A stretch of DNA of 22,522 bases. Origin: a virus. A model generated the notes under the pieces. That model was not told where the DNA came from. It ran no database searches and saw nothing but the letters and a program-made list of their open reading frames with translations. Below, in pieces: positions 16,583 through 22,482 of this stretch; position 1 is the first letter of the stretch, and each line of letters opens with the position of its first letter. The DNA is taken from IMG/VR virus record IMGVR_UViG_3300025131_000476, positions 1 through 22,522 of that record. The stretch is one strand, 5' to 3'. The translations under genes were made by a program, and so were the position numbers.

Positions 16583-17325
16583 TATAATAATCCTCCTAGT
16601 AATCCCATTCCACCACCAATAAGTGCTCCCATGCCTCCAGTCATTCCTAACATTGGACCTAAAGCAGCTCCTGACATAGCTCCTCCTGCTGCCATACCCA
16701 TAGCATTAGGCGGTGGTGCTTGTGTTGTTTGTTGTTGAGTTGGTAATCCAAAAGCAATTGGTGCAACAGTATTATAATACTGAGACAATGCTTGTTGGGG
16801 TGCCATTTGTTGTTGAGCCTGTATATCTTCTAAAGCTCCTCCTACTGCTGTTAAACTTGGTACTCTTTGAGCAGTTTGAAGTTGTCTTCCTCTTTCTCTT
16901 TCCAGTTGACCAAATGCATAAGGTAATGCTTTTTGTGCAACTTGTCCTGTTACTGTAGCCTGTGAAAGAGGACTTCCTGGAGTTCTACCTGCTCCACTAA
17001 ATTGTCCAGCAACATTAGAATATATATCTTGAGCAGATTGTGCAATCATAGGAGATAAGAAAGGATTGGTATACTGTCCTTGTATAGTACCTAATATTTG
17101 TTGGTTAGCAGCATTAGCTATTTGCTCTTGCGATGCTAATCCTTGTAATGTTTGTGTTGTTGGTGGTACATATCCTGCAGCAGATGGACCTTGACCATAG
17201 ATTGTACCTGCTTCAGATAAAATCTGATTTAATCCAGGTTGTGCTGGTCCATAAGGTTCTGCTTGTTGAATGGTAGTGGTTTGTCCACCGCTACCGCCTG
17301 ATGATCCTCCTCCTATAAAACTCAT
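16582..17325 (-). CDS. Gly/Gln-rich internal virion protein
   Basis: The product has 247 residues: a Gly/Ser-rich start, a Gln/Ala-rich helical middle (NPFLSPMIAQSAQDIYSNVAG, LSQATVTGQVAQKALPYAF, LERERGRQLQTAQRV), and a Gly/Ala/Met-rich hydrophobic end (about 205-247) that could insert into a membrane. This matches internal virion or DNA-ejection proteins next to GNAT-like genes in many podoviruses. It starts in an ATGA overlap with the GNAT-like gene and has AGGAG about 11 bases upstream. Confidence 0.65.
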   Translation of the reverse strand: MSFIGGGSSGGSGGQTTTIQQAEPYGPAQPGLNQILSEAGTIYGQGPSAAGYVPPTTQTLQGLASQEQIANAANQQILGTIQGQYTNPFLSPMIAQSAQDIYSNVAGQFSGAGRTPGSPLSQATVTGQVAQKALPYAFGQLERERGRQLQTAQRVPSLTAVGGALEDIQAQQQMAPQQALSQYYNTVAPIAFGLPTQQQTTQAPPPNAMGMAAGGAMSGAALGPMLGMTGGMGALIGGGMGLLGGLL

Positions 17326-17762
17326 TTTTCTTTTTTCTCCTTTTGTTTTTCTAATAATACATGGCTTTCTTTATAACCGAATGGTTTCATAACTCTTTTC
17401 CATCCTGGTCTTGCAATCAATTCTATTGAATCGCATTTGTTTATCCATGCAAAATCTTCTATGTGCTTAATTAAACCTTGCCATTTTTCACGATGTTTTC
17501 CTGTCATAATTTTGATATTCAAACATCTTCTTAATGGTCGTTGTATTATTTCTGTTACCACTACTCCATAGTATTTGGAGTCCTTATCAGCTTCTGAATC
17601 CCAAAGAATCCATAACTGCATTTTTGTTTCTTTAATCCATTTCTTTATATGTTCTGCTAAAGCATATCCATTAGATCTGTTTAAAGCATTGGCAATATCA
17701 GTTCTAACAATACTCCAAGCAGGATCTAAACTTTTTACAGGTATATTAATTAATTGGATCAC
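17322..17762 (-). CDS. GNAT-like acetyltransferase domain protein
   Basis: The product has 146 residues, starting at a GTG that overlaps the previous stop (GTGA). The beta-type segment YYGVVVTEIIQR, the helix GLIKHIEDFAWINKCDSIELIARPGWKRVMKPFGYKES and the short length fit the small GNAT-like proteins that lie before an internal virion gene in podoviruses. The classic acetyl-CoA-binding RxxGxG/A loop is not obvious (GKHREKWQ occupies that region), so catalytic activity is uncertain. It may have a structural or assembly role. The C-terminus is Lys/Glu-rich. Confidence 0.6.
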   Translation of the reverse strand: MIQLINIPVKSLDPAWSIVRTDIANALNRSNGYALAEHIKKWIKETKMQLWILWDSEADKDSKYYGVVVTEIIQRPLRRCLNIKIMTGKHREKWQGLIKHIEDFAWINKCDSIELIARPGWKRVMKPFGYKESHVLLEKQKEKKEK

Positions 17763-18085
17763 GTAATAACTAAATAACTTATTCCTATATGTGTTGAATC
17801 TGAAGAACTCATTGTAGCTTTTAAACTGTCCGATGCTTCTAGCACTAAAGGGACTGTTAAAATCTCAACTGCAGTATTAGCAGAAAGTATTTGAGTTTTC
17901 AATATTGTATATTCTGTGCTGGCTGAATTATCAGATAAATCCATAGATACTGTAGGGGTATTAGCAGTATTGTTAGTAACTCTAATGGATCTTATAATAA
18001 TAGTTTCAGTAGAAGCTGCTGTTAATAAAGCAGTTTCATCAGTTGTTGCTAATGCAACCCCTTTAAATTTGTAACTATTAGCCAT
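17759..18085 (-). CDS. Small beta-rich virion protein
   Basis: The product has 108 residues, almost all beta-type: TIIIRSIRVTNNT, TVSMDLSDNSAS, AVEILTVPLVLEASDSLKATM, IGISYLVIT. The pattern (IRSIRVxNxT, then a VP strand and ASDSLKA) is typical of small beta-sandwich proteins in phage tails or capsid decorations. There is no good ribosome site just before this ATG, but a strong one lies upstream in front of a 22-codon overlapping frame, which suggests coupled translation. Confidence 0.6.
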   Translation of the reverse strand: MANSYKFKGVALATTDETALLTAASTETIIIRSIRVTNNTANTPTVSMDLSDNSASTEYTILKTQILSANTAVEILTVPLVLEASDSLKATMSSSDSTHIGISYLVIT

Positions 18086-18149: not shown

Positions 18150-18908
18150 TTATTCTACTAAATCCCAGCTTGTTGTTTCTTCGTTCCATCTATATGCTTT
18201 TCCATCATCAGGATAAGCAACTGATGCTTCTCGCACTTTTTCTCTTGCATATCTTTCAGCCGCTACAGATAAGTTCACCAACGCTTGATTTTTTACATAC
18301 TCAGCACCTATATTATATTTTTGATGCCATGCTAATGTTCGTTGAGAATACTCCTTGTCTTTTACTAATTTTGATTCAGAAGTCTTAAGTCCAAAAGTTA
18401 TTATAACACGCCTCCAAGGAGCATCAGGACTAAGCCTGCTTACACCATGAGGAACACCCCCTGCATTTACAAGACATTTATTAAATGTAGGAACTTCTCC
18501 ACGTAGTCCAAGACCTTCCAAATCTTCATATAAAAAAATACCTCCCCAATCTATATTCCACACAGGATTTAAAAAAAGTATAGAAGCAAATGTGTAGTGT
18601 GCATCATCATGCCACCCAATATAGCCTCCTGGTGGGTATAAATAATATTGTGATTGCTGGGGAGGGGTAGCTTCTTCCCATGTTAATCCTGCTTTTTCTT
18701 TAAGTGTTTGATGAATAGAAGCAGTAAACTTATCAGGTAATGGTAAAATAGGCACTGGAGATGTAGCACGTTGAATCTGCTGCTTCCATTGGAGACTAGT
18801 TTTCCATCTAGGCTCTTGAGTCTTAAGGGAGGCATCTACATAGACCTCAATCTCATTAATTAACTTAAAATCTAAGAAATTATTAAAAGATTTAAGAATT
18901 TGTTTCAT
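18150..18908 (-). CDS. 2OG-Fe(II) oxygenase (prolyl 4-hydroxylase-like)
   Basis: The product has 252 residues. YYLYPPGGYIGWHDDAHY carries H100-x-D102, the first two iron ligands. GGVPHGVSRL gives distal H154, and PWRRVIITFG gives R166/R167 for 2-oxoglutarate binding. The order and spacing fit the Fe(II)/2OG dioxygenase fold common in marine phages. The enzyme probably hydroxylates a protein or nucleic acid. The C-terminal 60 residues are an added helical part ending in PDDGKAYRWNEETTSWDL, nearly the same as the end of the adjacent 128-residue protein. It overlaps that gene by 17 bases. Confidence 0.8.
   Translation of the reverse strand: MKQILKSFNNFLDFKLINEIEVYVDASLKTQEPRWKTSLQWKQQIQRATSPVPILPLPDKFTASIHQTLKEKAGLTWEEATPPQQSQYYLYPPGGYIGWHDDAHYTFASILFLNPVWNIDWGGIFLYEDLEGLGLRGEVPTFNKCLVNAGGVPHGVSRLSPDAPWRRVIITFGLKTSESKLVKDKEYSQRTLAWHQKYNIGAEYVKNQALVNLSVAAERYAREKVREASVAYPDDGKAYRWNEETTSWDLVE
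18159..18212. repeat. First copy of a 54-base direct repeat encoding a WNEETTSWDL tail
   Basis: This stretch is the end of the 2OG oxygenase gene. By my alignment it matches 18910-18963 at about 46 of 54 bases without gaps. Both copies encode PDD(G/D)KxYxWNEETTSWDL at a protein C-terminus. Confidence 0.7.
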
Positions 18909-19278
18909 TTAAATCCCAGCTAGTCGTTTCTTCATTCCAGCTATATCTTTTATCATCATCAGGTTTAGCAACTGGTGCTTCCCAACGACAAGTATCTTCA
19001 TTTAAAGTCCATGATTTAAAAGGTTTTGGTGAAATAAAAGCATCTCTGGTTGAATCATACTTATATCCTTTACCAGCGTAATTTTTTCTAAAAGGTGTTC
19101 CTCCTAACGTATGAACTCCGCCTTTTGTATTATAAGAAGTTTGAACCCAAACATCTCTTGTTTTATATAAAGTATTTAAAAAATCTATTCCAGCTTGTTC
19201 GGTTGTTGCTATGTCGTTTGATACAACATGAACAGCTGTAACTTTACTTCCTATTCCTAATTTTGCAAAATGTGCCAT
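18892..19278 (-). CDS. Small fibre-associated protein with NEExxxW repeats
   Basis: The product has 128 residues. The start MAHFAKLGIGSKVTAVHVVSND, the VWVQTSYNTKGG, FRKNYAGKGYKYDSTRDAFISPKPFKSW segments and the tail match a protein that is widespread in marine phages beside tail-fibre genes. Two related C-terminal half-repeats are visible: SWTLNEDTCRWEAP and YSWNEETTSWDL. It is probably a virion or fibre-tip component. It starts three bases after the tail fibre with AGGA upstream. Confidence 0.65.
   Translation of the reverse strand: MAHFAKLGIGSKVTAVHVVSNDIATTEQAGIDFLNTLYKTRDVWVQTSYNTKGGVHTLGGTPFRKNYAGKGYKYDSTRDAFISPKPFKSWTLNEDTCRWEAPVAKPDDDKRYSWNEETTSWDLNETNS
18910..18963. repeat. Second copy of the 54-base direct repeat
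   Basis: This copy is near the end of the 128-residue gene and encodes KPDDDKRYSWNEETTSWDL. See the first copy at 18159-18212. The two are 751 bases apart in the same orientation, so recombination between them would remove the oxygenase body. Confidence 0.7.
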
Positions 19279-19281
19279 AAA

Positions 19282-22200
19282 TTATCCTGTGTAACTCCCA
19301 TCTGCGTTAAATATTAAAATTGTTTCATCTGCGACACTTGATGTGTCTATAGTTGGCGAACCTGTTGTTGTTCCTGAATAACTTGCATCAGGTATTCTTA
19401 AAATTACCACGCCACTTCCACCATCACCAGAGCCATCTACAACTTTTGATGCACCACCACCTCCGCCAGTATTTGCAGTACCATTCCCACCATTTGTTCC
19501 ACCACCACCAGTACCAGCTGCACCGACAGTTCCGTCACCTGGAGAGCCACCACCTCCTCCTCCTCCACGAGTTACAGCAGAACCAGTAATTGAACTTGCA
19601 AGACCTGCTCCACCATCTCCTCCTGTTCCAGAATTTGATGCTGAATCTCCGCCTACAGCACCAGCACCACCGCCGCCACCGCCGCCATATCCATTTCCAT
19701 TCGTTGACGCATCTCCACCATCATAACCTTGATTAGCAGTACCATCTCCTCTTGCACCTGATGAACCAGCACCTCCACCACAGCCACCATCACCTCCATC
19801 AGCTAGGTTTGTATCACCATATCCACCACCAGCAGAAGTTACTGTCGTTATTCCAGAACCAGATATACTTGAGTCGCTTCCAGTTGAACCTCGTTTTTCA
19901 GATGCAGAGCCACTATAATCTGTTGCTGCTGCACCACCAGCACCGATTGTTATTGTGTATTGTGTTCCTGATGTAGCAGTTAATACAGTTTCAGTTGAAG
20001 CACCTCTTCCAGATGTTTCTGAACCAAAGGAATTTCTATATCCTCCAGCTCCTCCACCACCACCATAAAGAAAGGCACTTCCTCCTCCACCAGCAACAAC
20101 TAAATATTCTATCTCATATGAAGGTGGATTTATTGCTGGAGCGGTGTTATCATTAACTCCTGTAGCCGCTACCCAACCTTGTGTAGCATCTACATAAACT
20201 ATTTTAATTCCTTGTCGTTCAACACTTAATGTCCCATCATCGGTTGAACCTTTTATTTTTTCTGAACCATCTGCTGTAAGAGTGACATTATTAGTATCCC
20301 AAGTTCCAGCATAATCCACTAATTCTATTGTATCTCCAACTGAACCAGCTGGAAGTGTAACTGTACATGCTTGTGCAGTCGTATTGACAGGATAACCATT
20401 CCCAGCAACCGCTGTAAATGTGGCTCCTGTTTCTACGGATTGCCAAGATGTGCCACCACCAGAAGCATCTTCAAAAGCTGGAGCTGCACCAGCACCAGCA
20501 GAAGTTAAAACTTGTCCATCGTTTCCAGTTGCTATCGCTACTGGATCGCCACTTGCATCGTATGAAATTATATTACCATCAGTTCCTCCAGCCATGTATG
20601 CCAAAGTAACTGCATTGTCTTTAATAGAAACCGCTCCTGAACTAACATCAAAATCTGATGAGCTAAAAGATGCAACACCTTTATTGGATGTGCTGGCATC
20701 TTCACCAGAAATAGTAACTGTGTCTGTGGCTGTTACCGCAGTATCAATTCCTTCTCCAGCAGCAACGACCATTGTATTGCTATCTGCTACTGTTTGAGTT
20801 GCTGAGCCATCGGACAATGTAAAATTAGACATTGTGCCTTTTGCATCCAACTGGGTTTGAATATCAGAAGTAACTCCGTCTAATCTTTGATACTCTGCAT
20901 CGCTGACTGTTCCATCTGCAATTTTAGCCGCACCAATGCTGTTTACTCCAATGGTAATTGTTCCAGCAGAAGTAACAGGTGTGCTGGCAATTGTAAATTC
21001 TGATGATCCAGCGTCTCCTAAACCTACTGAAGTTACTGTTCCAGAATTGGAAGGGGTAACTCTACTAAATGAAATTGAATCTGAATCTAATGTTGCATCG
21101 TTATCTGTAGTACAAAGCCAGAAAGTATTATCATTGGTTGTTCCTTGATTGATAATAACCATCTGTCCAGATAATTCTGAAATGGTATTGAAATCCGTAT
21201 CTCTGCTAGCTGCTCCTGATGCAACAACGGTATAAACTCCGTTCTGACTACCAGTAGACTGATCTTTAAGTAAAACCCTATCCCCTGTTGCAAGGGTAAC
21301 ACCGTCTAGCGTATCTCCGTTTTCAAGTGCCGATGCAATGGTTACGTTTGCAGTTGATGCCGCTTCGCAAAGGATTCTTGTTTTTAAACCTGTAACAAGA
21401 TTGTCAACATAGGTTGTTGTAGCCTTTGTGTCCATTTGGGTTTGAATGGCAGAACTAACACCATCCAGATAACCCAGTTCTGTTTCTGTTACATCCGATA
21501 CTGCAATCTTTTGCGAACCGTTAGAAATAACAGCCCTGTTTGCTGTTAAAGATTCTGTATCAATTGTTGTAGCTGAACCTGTAATGGTTGCCTGTTTAGC
21601 GTCTAGCTGTGTTTGAATTGCGGATGTTACTCCACTCACATATCCCAACTCTGTATCCGTTGTAGCTGAAACAGCCACCTTCTGAGATCCGTTGGATATT
21701 AATGCTCTTGAAGCTGTTAATGATTCAGTGTCAATGGTAGTGGCAGATCCTGTTATGGTCGCCTGCTTTGCATCCAATTGTGTTTGAATGGCACTTGTAA
21801 CTCCTGAAACATATCCTAGTTCGGTATCGGTTGTTGCCGATACTGCAATTTTCTGTGCTGCGTTGGAAACAACGGCTCTACTAGCTGTCAGTGATTCAGT
21901 GTCTATGGTTGTTGCCGATCCAGTGATTGTTGCCTGTTTAGCATTAATCTGAGTTTGAATGACAGAGGTTACTCCGTTTAAATAATCGAATTCTGTTGAA
22001 GAAACATTTCCACCGCCAATTTTAGCGGCACTAATTCCTGTAGGTATTGAATCGTTGGTGCTAGTTATAATTCCTACATAAACAGAGGTAATGGCTTCAT
22101 TGGATAATGAACCGCTATCCCATGTTACGTTGACTGTGGTATTGGTTGAAAAGGATGTGCTGGAAACAGTTCCATAAATTGTGCCTGGTGATGATGCAAC

Positions 22201-22482
22201 TAATTTAATTCTTCTGTTTGCATGATAGACGGATGTAACATCCACTCCGTCAACAGTAAAAGCTGTAGCAGAAACATAAGTCGCAGTATAGGTTCCTGCA
22301 CCGTCTCCATATTCTACCCATTGTCCGTCATTATACCATTGTCTAATGTCCGCCATCACATCTCTGAAGGCGTTATTAATATTTGATGGTAGCATACCCT
22401 CTGCAACAGATACTGAGTTTGTTCCTGTTGTTGAGTTGCTTGCTGCTGTTGTGTTGTATTTACCTATATATGTTCCTGACAT
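19282..22482 (-). CDS. Large tail fibre with tandem repeats and Gly-rich receptor-binding end
   Basis: The product has 1,066 residues and starts after AAGGAG. Domains in order: an N-terminal EGMLPSNINNAFRDVMADIRQWYN segment (about 28-51) seen in many marine phage fibres, likely for virion attachment; tandem 57-residue repeats (about 164-354); a beta-rich GDTLDGVTLATGDRVLLKDQSTGSQNGVYTV region; another GVTSDIQTQLDAK copy; and from about 781 a domain starting YEIEYLVVAGGGG with long Gly runs to about 1,027. Such Gly-rich parts can form polyglycine-II bundles in phage adhesins and bind receptors. The last 40 residues are a short cap (SVADETILIFNADGSYTG). Base composition looks less AT-rich than its neighbours. 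Confidence 0.85.
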   Translation of the reverse strand: MSGTYIGKYNTTAASNSTTGTNSVSVAEGMLPSNINNAFRDVMADIRQWYNDGQWVEYGDGAGTYTATYVSATAFTVDGVDVTSVYHANRRIKLVASSPGTIYGTVSSTSFSTNTTVNVTWDSGSLSNEAITSVYVGIITSTNDSIPTGISAAKIGGGNVSSTEFDYLNGVTSVIQTQINAKQATITGSATTIDTESLTASRAVVSNAAQKIAVSATTDTELGYVSGVTSAIQTQLDAKQATITGSATTIDTESLTASRALISNGSQKVAVSATTDTELGYVSGVTSAIQTQLDAKQATITGSATTIDTESLTANRAVISNGSQKIAVSDVTETELGYLDGVSSAIQTQMDTKATTTYVDNLVTGLKTRILCEAASTANVTIASALENGDTLDGVTLATGDRVLLKDQSTGSQNGVYTVVASGAASRDTDFNTISELSGQMVIINQGTTNDNTFWLCTTDNDATLDSDSISFSRVTPSNSGTVTSVGLGDAGSSEFTIASTPVTSAGTITIGVNSIGAAKIADGTVSDAEYQRLDGVTSDIQTQLDAKGTMSNFTLSDGSATQTVADSNTMVVAAGEGIDTAVTATDTVTISGEDASTSNKGVASFSSSDFDVSSGAVSIKDNAVTLAYMAGGTDGNIISYDASGDPVAIATGNDGQVLTSAGAGAAPAFEDASGGGTSWQSVETGATFTAVAGNGYPVNTTAQACTVTLPAGSVGDTIELVDYAGTWDTNNVTLTADGSEKIKGSTDDGTLSVERQGIKIVYVDATQGWVAATGVNDNTAPAINPPSYEIEYLVVAGGGGSAFLYGGGGGAGGYRNSFGSETSGRGASTETVLTATSGTQYTITIGAGGAAATDYSGSASEKRGSTGSDSSISGSGITTVTSAGGGYGDTNLADGGDGGCGGGAGSSGARGDGTANQGYDGGDASTNGNGYGGGGGGGAGAVGGDSASNSGTGGDGGAGLASSITGSAVTRGGGGGGGSPGDGTVGAAGTGGGGTNGGNGTANTGGGGGASKVVDGSGDGGSGVVILRIPDASYSGTTTGSPTIDTSSVADETILIFNADGSYTG
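21421..21993 (-). repeat. Tandem 57-residue (171-base) repeats in the tail fibre
   Basis: Three full copies and a partial fourth follow one another at residues about 164-220, 221-277, 278-334 and 335-354. The unit reads ELGYVSGVTSAIQTQLDAKQ then ATITGSATTIDTESLTASRA then a SNGSQKxAVSATTDT end. The first copy begins EFDYLNG and the fourth breaks off after DTK. Protein identity is higher than DNA identity, with synonymous changes between copies, so the repeats are old and maintained. Confidence 0.85.

What the first reader, a model, noticed from the sequence alone, without database searches (positions are those of the whole stretch)
18150..19278. 2OG oxygenase and fibre-associated protein share the same C-terminal tag
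Both proteins end in PDD(G/D)KxYxWNEETTSWDL, encoded by 54-base direct repeats about 85 percent identical by eye. The tag may be a docking motif that brings the oxygenase to the fibre, or attaches both to the virion; the oxygenase could then modify a fibre or surface protein. Two divergent half-copies in the 128-residue protein suggest that the motif repeats and spreads.
Basis: partly seen in the sequence, partly recalled or inferred. Interest (0 to 1): 0.5.

Follow-up and report, generated by a model that had tools for sequence, protein, structure and literature searches.

The report
Fibre-protein hairpin fused onto phage oxygenase
In a marine phage, an oxygenase gene sits behind the tail-fibre gene and has picked up the end piece of its neighbour, a small fibre-linked protein, at a point where a related phage differs by a swapped fibre tip; this suggests that such oxygenases may work on the fibre rather than on host metabolism.

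Summary
Both proteins end in the same 24-residue segment (61 of 72 nt identical). The segment belongs to the 128-residue protein's family (phrog_7759, here F128), found behind fibre genes of mostly marine phages and predicted with high confidence to hold three beta-hairpins, the tag being the third. On the oxygenase it is a fusion: a 48%-identical homologue lacks it, and no second tagged enzyme turned up in the loci read.

Its origin is visible. A close relative (L097) lacks the oxygenase, and its F128 3' end plus downstream DNA matches the oxygenase's 3' end. Fibre tip, F128 and oxygenase differ as one block with a junction inside the tag; it is not simply a copy of its neighbour.

Docking is untested but gains indirect support. 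2OG oxygenases often follow fibre-F128 modules (41-61 of 131 first genes, against 4-7 of 81 upstream); in a second sample they occur in 6 of 9 F128-bearing and 4 of 29 F128-less groups. One F128 locus led to a PLOD-like enzyme paired with Lys-rich collagen-like fibres. I favour fibre-directed modification, with the tag as a recombination-born handle.

The parts
18150..18908 (-). 2OG-Fe(II) oxygenase-like protein, 252 aa, with C-terminal tag
   Evidence: PF13640 E=2.6e-4 (below Pfam cut-off); H100, D102, H154 shared with the L003 homologue
18159..18230 (-). tag on the oxygenase (EASVAYPDDGKAYRWNEETTSWDL, residues 227-250)
   Evidence: 61 of 72 nt identical to the F128 tag; absent in the L003 homologue
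18171..18188 (-). inferred right-hand crossover inside the tag; from about 18188 downward the DNA matches L097's F128 3' end and what follows it, with one mismatch in the rest of the tag
18892..19278 (-). F128, small fibre-linked protein, phrog_7759
   Evidence: E=1.3e-37; AlphaFold2 pLDDT 96.5
18910..18981 (-). tag on F128, holding hairpin 3 (residues 112-123 at 18910-18945)
18976..19014 (-). hairpin 2 of F128 (SWTLNEDTCRWEA, residues 89-101)
19030..19065 (-). hairpin 1 of F128 (YKYDSTRDAFIS, residues 72-83)
18603..18611 (-). codons 100-102 of the oxygenase: H100 and D102, predicted iron ligands
   Evidence: invariant columns (two sequences); role from 2OG oxygenase family knowledge
18447..18449 (-). 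codon of H154, predicted third iron ligand
   Evidence: invariant column (two sequences); role inferred
19282..22482 (-). tail-fibre-like protein, 1066 aa, with glycine-rich C-terminal domain
   Evidence: (PF21722 E=3.1e-16)
18188..20297 (-). block that differs from L097: fibre C-terminal part + F128 + oxygenase (neighbouring DNA 95.7% identical over 1324 bp on the fibre side and 98.8% over 2850 bp on the other)
17759..18085 (-). 108-aa conserved protein marking the right flank of the variable slot
17322..17762 (-). 146-aa protein (weak acetyltransferase-like match) used as anchor for the second sample

Best explanation
F128 is a small fibre-linked protein that follows a fibre gene, usually one per fibre, and ends in a string of Trp/Tyr beta-hairpins. 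In this phage the fibre tip, F128 and a 2OG oxygenase form one exchangeable cassette. The oxygenase gained F128's last hairpin because the right-hand crossover of a cassette exchange lay inside the conserved 3' end of F128, leaving an F128 end attached in frame to the oxygenase (the junction is shown; the order of events is inferred). The oxygenase most likely hydroxylates a residue in the fibre tip or in F128 during assembly, and the added hairpin, of the kind in which F128 ends, most likely holds it at that assembly (inferred, not tested).
For: Junction: L097 matches the window at 98.8% over 2850 bp on the right and 95.7% over 1324 bp of the fibre gene on the left; the right match begins inside the oxygenase tag, where L097 has its F128 tag. 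L097 has F128 followed directly by the 108-aa gene and no oxygenase. Fusion is lineage-specific: the 48% homologue in L003 has no tag. Module: [fibre][F128] occurs 1-3 times in a row in the loci listed. Association: PF13640 in 41, PF13759 in 18 and PF13532 in 2 of 131 first genes downstream of the last F128, against 3, 4 and 0 of 81 genes upstream of the fibre. Second sample, picked by the 146-aa protein: 6 of 9 F128-bearing groups have a 2OG gene against 4 of 29 (one-sided Fisher p=0.0045); without this phage 5 of 8 against 4 of 29, p=0.0115. The 2OG models of that test came from F128 neighbourhoods; a Pfam and PHROG scan of the 17 non-fibre genes in the other F128-less groups listed no 2OG family (the PHROG list showed 25 of 32 families). 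Precedent for fibre as substrate: in L160 a GT25 + GT_PLOD + 2OG protein follows F128 and a fibre with a run of 94 Gly-X-Y triplets; 51 of 57 loci of that enzyme family with at least 2 kb upstream hold collagen-like sequence, 13 of 14 groups, with Lys in 27% of Y positions and about none in X; comparison sets 0 of 71, 2 of 84, 6 of 117. Hairpin: three hairpins predicted, block pLDDT 96-98 over residues 71-120.
Against: No virion, binding or enzyme data. A junction at the tag explains the shared tag without any docking. The tagged oxygenase was seen only in this lineage (window, L001, L002; no DNA difference over the 1384 and 1520 bp compared), so there is no test of selection on the tag. No other tagged enzyme was found among the loci read. 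The 2OG neighbour is not universal: 3 of 9 F128-bearing groups lack one, and 4 of 29 F128-less groups have one. The model of the oxygenase is poor (mean pLDDT 39). The collagen case concerns another 2OG subfamily, and only 11 of its 80 loci (12 by core or tag) contain F128. The crossover-at-the-tag pattern is weak elsewhere: of 26 swap-like pairs 14 have the tag more alike than the core.
Confidence: 0.42

Rival explanations
1. Recombination scar only. The tag is a leftover F128 3' end, fused in frame by cassette exchange; it has no function on the oxygenase, which works without it as its homologue presumably does.
For: Junction inside the tag; homologue without tag; tag on an enzyme limited to one lineage in the loci read; no change between three contigs, so recent or one lineage; in 26 swap-like pairs of relatives mean identity rises from 0.73 in the core and 0.76 in the tag to 0.91 just after the stop.
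Against: The fusion keeps the part of the oxygenase that aligns with its homologue up to about residue 217 and adds one complete hairpin unit in frame; the upstream half of the tag fits other phages' tags better than L097's, so a tag may have been present before the last crossover.
Confidence: 0.38
2. The oxygenase acts on the host surface or on host metabolism (receptor masking, 2-oxoglutarate or DNA-repair roles), and sits in the fibre cassette because it is part of a host-recognition island.
For: Published readings: phage 2OG enzymes linked to 2-oxoglutarate metabolism or DNA repair, glycosyltransferases in the host-recognition cluster of pelagimyophages read as host O-chain modifiers; an island survey lists Fe(II)-dependent oxygenases with inferred function host recognition.
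Against: Does not explain pairing of PLOD-like enzymes with Lys-rich collagen-like fibres or that the oxygenase differs together with the fibre tip.
Confidence: 0.17
3. Simple duplication of the neighbouring F128 3' end inside this phage, with no exchange.
For: Tags 61 of 72 nt identical and 751 bp apart.
Against: Two other phages' F128 tags are as close (62 and 61 of 72), and the oxygenase 3' end and the DNA behind it match L097's F128 end, not the window's own F128 end.
Confidence: 0.03

Closest known systems
PHROG phrog_7759 (unknown function)
   Same: F128 matches it over its whole length (E=1.3e-37)
   Different: The family has no assigned function; the oxygenase carries only the last hairpin of it
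Fibre plus downstream chaperone/adhesin pairs (lambda Stf-Tfa, Mu S-U, T4 gp37-gp38; recalled)
   Same: Small gene directly behind a fibre gene, differing together with the fibre tip
   Different: No Pfam match to E=1; no PDB fold hit at E<=0.001 (best 0.73); the 13 BFVD hits at E<=0.001 are uncharacterised or unnamed, and a tail fibre assembly protein appears only at E=0.46
2OG-Fe(II) oxygenases of marine phages (phrog_61, phrog_81; PF13640, PF13759)
   Same: Same superfamily by weak profile match, same slot behind the fibre in many phages
   Different: This oxygenase is a rare subfamily (one homologue, 48% identical, found in viral contigs) and is tagged
Collagen lysyl hydroxylase/glycosyltransferase LH3 (PLOD3) and its mimivirus homologue
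   Same: The L160 enzyme matches LH3 (E=3.3e-24) and the solved hydroxylase 6ax6 (E=4e-6) and lies beside a Lys-rich collagen-like fibre
   Different: Concerns related loci, not the window's oxygenase, which has no glycosyltransferase domain
Phage tryptophan halogenase (prnA of cyanophages)
   Same: A halogenase-like gene lies between F128 and the oxygenase in L003; others behind F128 in L057 and L225
   Different: None between fibre and 108-aa gene in the window

Membership tests
phrog_7759 (F128) | Full-length profile match | tested here: met
   residues 1-124 to profile 1-121 of 125, E=1.3e-37
phrog_7759 (F128) | C-terminal Trp hairpin in family members | tested here: met
   Y112 0.97, W114 1.0, N115 0.97, E116 0.99, W121 1.0 in 68 aligned sequences
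2OG-Fe(II) oxygenase superfamily | Pfam profile above curated cut-off | tested here: not met
   PF13640 22.3 bits against 27
2OG-Fe(II) oxygenase superfamily | HxD...H iron triad | tested here: met
   H100, D102, H154 invariant, but only two sequences
2OG-Fe(II) oxygenase superfamily | Double-stranded beta-helix fold | tested here: inconclusive
   mean pLDDT 39
2OG-Fe(II) oxygenase superfamily | Iron- and 2OG-dependent activity | not testable with these tools
   needs protein
Tail fibre chaperone (Tfa/gp38/PF16778) | Sequence profile match of F128 | tested here: not met
   no Pfam match to E=1
Tail fibre chaperone (Tfa/gp38/PF16778) | Gene directly downstream of the fibre, usually one per fibre | tested here: met
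Tail fibre chaperone (Tfa/gp38/PF16778) | Needed for fibre folding | not testable with these tools
   needs genetics

The most novel reading that the evidence does not exclude
Marine phages carry exchangeable fibre-tailoring cassettes: behind each fibre sits F128, whose Trp-hairpin tail is a common docking handle, and behind that a changing set of protein-modifying enzymes (2OG hydroxylases, PLOD-like lysyl hydroxylase/glycosyltransferases, sulfotransferases, tryptophan halogenases) that decorate the receptor-binding fibre. The window's oxygenase is a natural fusion that shows the link by carrying the handle itself.
Probability: 0.27. Interest if true: 0.85.

Novelty: new variant of a known kind. 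Interest (0 to 1): 0.55.

Why it matters
2OG oxygenases recur in marine phages and, in the papers whose passages I saw, are mostly read as metabolic or DNA-repair genes. If they modify the fibre, phages would have post-translational control over receptor binding, and a long-puzzling 'auxiliary metabolic gene' would get a testable job. The PLOD/collagen pairing gives an immediate test in cultured phages (CRP-6, S-CAM9, S-PRM1).

Tried and rejected
Rejected: own-phage duplication as sole origin. Rejected: filing F128 under PF16778 or Tfa; no profile match. Two members of the upstream control set matched PF16778 (which ones was not shown); the three repeat-rich F128 relatives L115, L141 and L181 did not match it at E<=0.1 when scanned. 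Recalled and not tested: likeness of the tag to the GB1 hairpin.

Led nowhere: oxygenase homologues in named phages (none; only partial, mostly weak hits); alignment-based search for more oxygenase relatives (the same three loci); the L003 oxygenase in bacterial genomes (none confirmed); oxygenase structure; solved relatives of F128 (none significant) and of the oxygenase (best E=0.42). The ungapped breakpoint table misleads where lengths differ and was replaced. In one search only 14 of 26 swap-like pairs have the tag more alike than the core (means: core 0.73, hairpin 2 0.71, tag 0.76, first 60 nt after the stop 0.91; random pairs 0.57, 0.63, 0.57), so a junction in the tag is not a rule; the rows share loci and are not independent.

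Dropped rows and biases: one search left out L002, L127 and the window, loci with F128 on both strands, and all but one locus per 90% F128 group, leaving 161; 131 had a downstream gene of 100 aa or more on the same strand and 81 an upstream one. Of the 131, L001 and L003 were fetched with the oxygenase query and L004 and L006 with its tag; L089 and L091 were opened by hand, L089 partly because a 2OG gene was annotated there (its 2OG gene lies before F128 and counts in the control). Pfam counts are per family and may overlap in one protein, hence the ranges. One search used 48 of 71 loci (at least 3.5 kb upstream), in 38 groups; its 2OG models were built from F128 neighbourhoods, checked afterwards. 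Of the 80 loci one (L283) is L160's own contig.

Full report
What is there. On the minus strand a 1066-aa fibre-like gene (19282-22482) is followed by F128 (18892-19278), then, with a 17-nt overlap, a 252-aa 2OG-oxygenase-like gene (18150-18908), a 108-aa gene and a 146-aa gene. Residues 227-250 of the oxygenase and 24 residues near the end of F128 are homologous: 61 of 72 nt, 19 of 24 residues by my count. tblastn of the oxygenase against its own record finds the second copy at E=1.2e-7.

What the tag is. Its AlphaFold2 model (68 sequences, pLDDT 96.5) has an alpha/beta N-terminal part and three hairpins, strands 73-75/80-82, 91-93/98-100 and 112-115/120-123; the tag holds the third. Aromatic and turn residues recur across the three units. 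No PDB fold matches at E<=0.001; the 13 BFVD matches at that level are uncharacterised or unnamed. Longer F128 relatives (L115, L141, L181; 275-325 aa) carry further such units, and the tag ends other small proteins that match phrog_7759 only at their C-terminal part, such as L176, L184 and L185. So the tag is F128's own repeat unit.

The oxygenase tag is the exception. Among tag-bearing reading frames of L001-L211 the only enzyme was this oxygenase, in the window, L001, L002 and L127 (L127 and L002 are one contig). In L212-L366 it was again this oxygenase alone, in L212, the same contig. The homologue in L003 (48% identical) ends about where the tag would start and lies behind F128 and a tryptophan-halogenase-like gene.

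How it arose. L097 is a near relative: 98.8% over 2850 bp on the right and 95.7% over 1324 bp within the fibre gene on the left. It has F128 followed at once by the 108-aa gene. Its match to the window resumes inside the oxygenase's tag: from TGG AAC GAA onward L097's F128 3' end, stop and the DNA behind it equal the oxygenase's with one mismatch in the tag, while the window's own F128 3' end differs there. Relative to L097, then, the window differs by one block: fibre C-terminal part, F128 and oxygenase, with one junction in the fibre gene and one in the tag. The upstream half of the oxygenase tag is closer to some other phages' tags (EAPVAYPDDGK in L118) than to L097's, so either the donor oxygenase was already tagged or a third allele took part. 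Window, L001 and L002 show no difference over the 1384 and 1520 bp compared, so the event is recent or the sample is one lineage.

Is the oxygenase linked to fibre and F128? In F128 loci the layout [fibre][F128], one to three times, is often followed by oxygenase clusters. Taking the first gene behind the last F128 (131 of 161 loci kept after thinning), PF13640 is found in 41, PF13759 in 18 and PF13532 in 2; for the gene before the fibre the counts are 3, 4 and 0 of 81. Four of the 131 had been fetched with the oxygenase query or its tag. A second sample was chosen by the 146-aa protein: of 38 groups, 2OG genes occur in 6 of 9 with F128 and 4 of 29 without (one-sided p=0.0045; p=0.0115 without this phage). 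Because the 2OG models came from F128 neighbourhoods, I listed the non-fibre genes of 120 aa or more within 3.5 kb in the 29 F128-less groups: 30 genes in 14 groups, 13 of them in the four groups already counted. The other 17 showed no 2OG family in Pfam and none among the 25 of 32 PHROG families shown. The link is clear but not exclusive: oxygenases also sit behind other fibre types.

What might the substrate be? Other first genes behind F128 match sulfotransferase (3 of 131), tryptophan halogenase (2 of 131) and GT_PLOD and GT25 (1 of 131 each). The last two lie in one 599-aa protein of L160 together with a 2OG stretch; it matches human LH3 at E=3.3e-24 and the solved hydroxylase 6ax6 at E=4e-6. 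Beside it lie F128 and a fibre with a run of 94 Gly-X-Y triplets such as GQKGQKGEVG. Of 80 loci of this enzyme (L160's own contig included), 57 have at least 2 kb upstream and 51 of these hold collagen-like sequence, 13 of 14 groups; of the 23 with less upstream DNA, 7 do. Over 4116 triplets Lys fills 27% of Y positions and about none of X, while comparison sets have such runs in 0 of 71, 2 of 84 and 6 of 117 loci. Four named records opened of 11 matched (CRP-6, S-CAM9, S-PRM1, S-8S53; the last three are related cyanophages) all show it: Lys in Y in 26 of 97, 22 of 59, 23 of 59 and 24 of 55 triplets, none in X. Lysyl hydroxylases act on Lys in the Y position (established knowledge), so here enzyme and fibre look like enzyme and substrate. 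In these four records the small gene behind the fibre is not an F128 relative by profile. This supports fibre-directed modification for a neighbouring enzyme family; for the window's oxygenase it is analogy.

Judgement. Shown: the shared tag, its family, its hairpin model, the junction, the gene-neighbour association, the collagen/PLOD pairing. Inferred: that the oxygenase works on the fibre tip or F128, and that the tag holds it there. The plain rival, a recombination scar without function, is nearly as likely.

Literature. I saw search listings and passages of seven papers: PMC2984593, PMC5628999, PMC9004378, PMC11288001, PMC10611076, PMC7029224, PMC3909814. Six of them read or list phage 2OG enzymes in a metabolic, DNA-repair or nucleic-acid setting; PMC3909814 lists Fe(II)-dependent oxygenases (8 genes) among island genes with inferred function host recognition. 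In the listings I saw no report of a phage lysyl hydroxylase acting on a fibre; the two papers holding both 'lysyl hydroxylase' and 'cyanophage' concern, by title and start of abstract, other subjects. The library is open-access only, and the listings showed 12 of 32 and 12 of 285 papers.

Noticed in passing
L160:8308-12531 (-); L283-L362; named records L363-L366: A PLOD-like protein (GT25 + GT_PLOD + 2OG stretches) next to Lys-rich collagen-like tail fibres in marine phages, including CRP-6, S-CAM9, S-PRM1 and S-8S53; Lys almost only in the Y position of Gly-X-Y. Possibly a more interesting finding than the one given.
   Followed up: partly
L003:551-2101; L057:5693-7180; L225: Tryptophan-halogenase-like genes directly behind F128 and near 2OG oxygenases; F128 is rich in conserved Trp.
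   Followed up: no
L045/L085, L038/L060, L056/L086, L060/L067: Pairs of related F128 genes in which the tag stands out as different (53-55% nt identity) while the core (87-93%) and the DNA 60-300 nt downstream (85-98%) stay alike: the tag may be exchanged on its own. Hairpin 2 (74-93%) and the first 60 nt after the stop (62-92%) vary; two pairs share L060.
   Followed up: partly
L035, L042, L106: Sulfotransferase-like genes as first gene behind F128 (L106 by Pfam, the others by clustering with it).
   Followed up: no
L226:2570-3118, L233, L238; also L105, L132, L170: A conserved family of about 170-180 aa (PKGFEI motif) behind F128, followed by oxygenases in L226, L233 and L238; the L226 member has no Pfam match at E<=0.1. 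Looks like another cupin/2OG-type enzyme by eye only.
   Followed up: no
window 21424-21996: Three 231-nt copies spaced 171 nt in the fibre stalk. The high-identity blocks with L097, L001 and L002 all begin at about window 21618, inside these repeats, and beyond it the fibre start is only about 77% identical: a further exchange point or an assembly effect.
   Followed up: no
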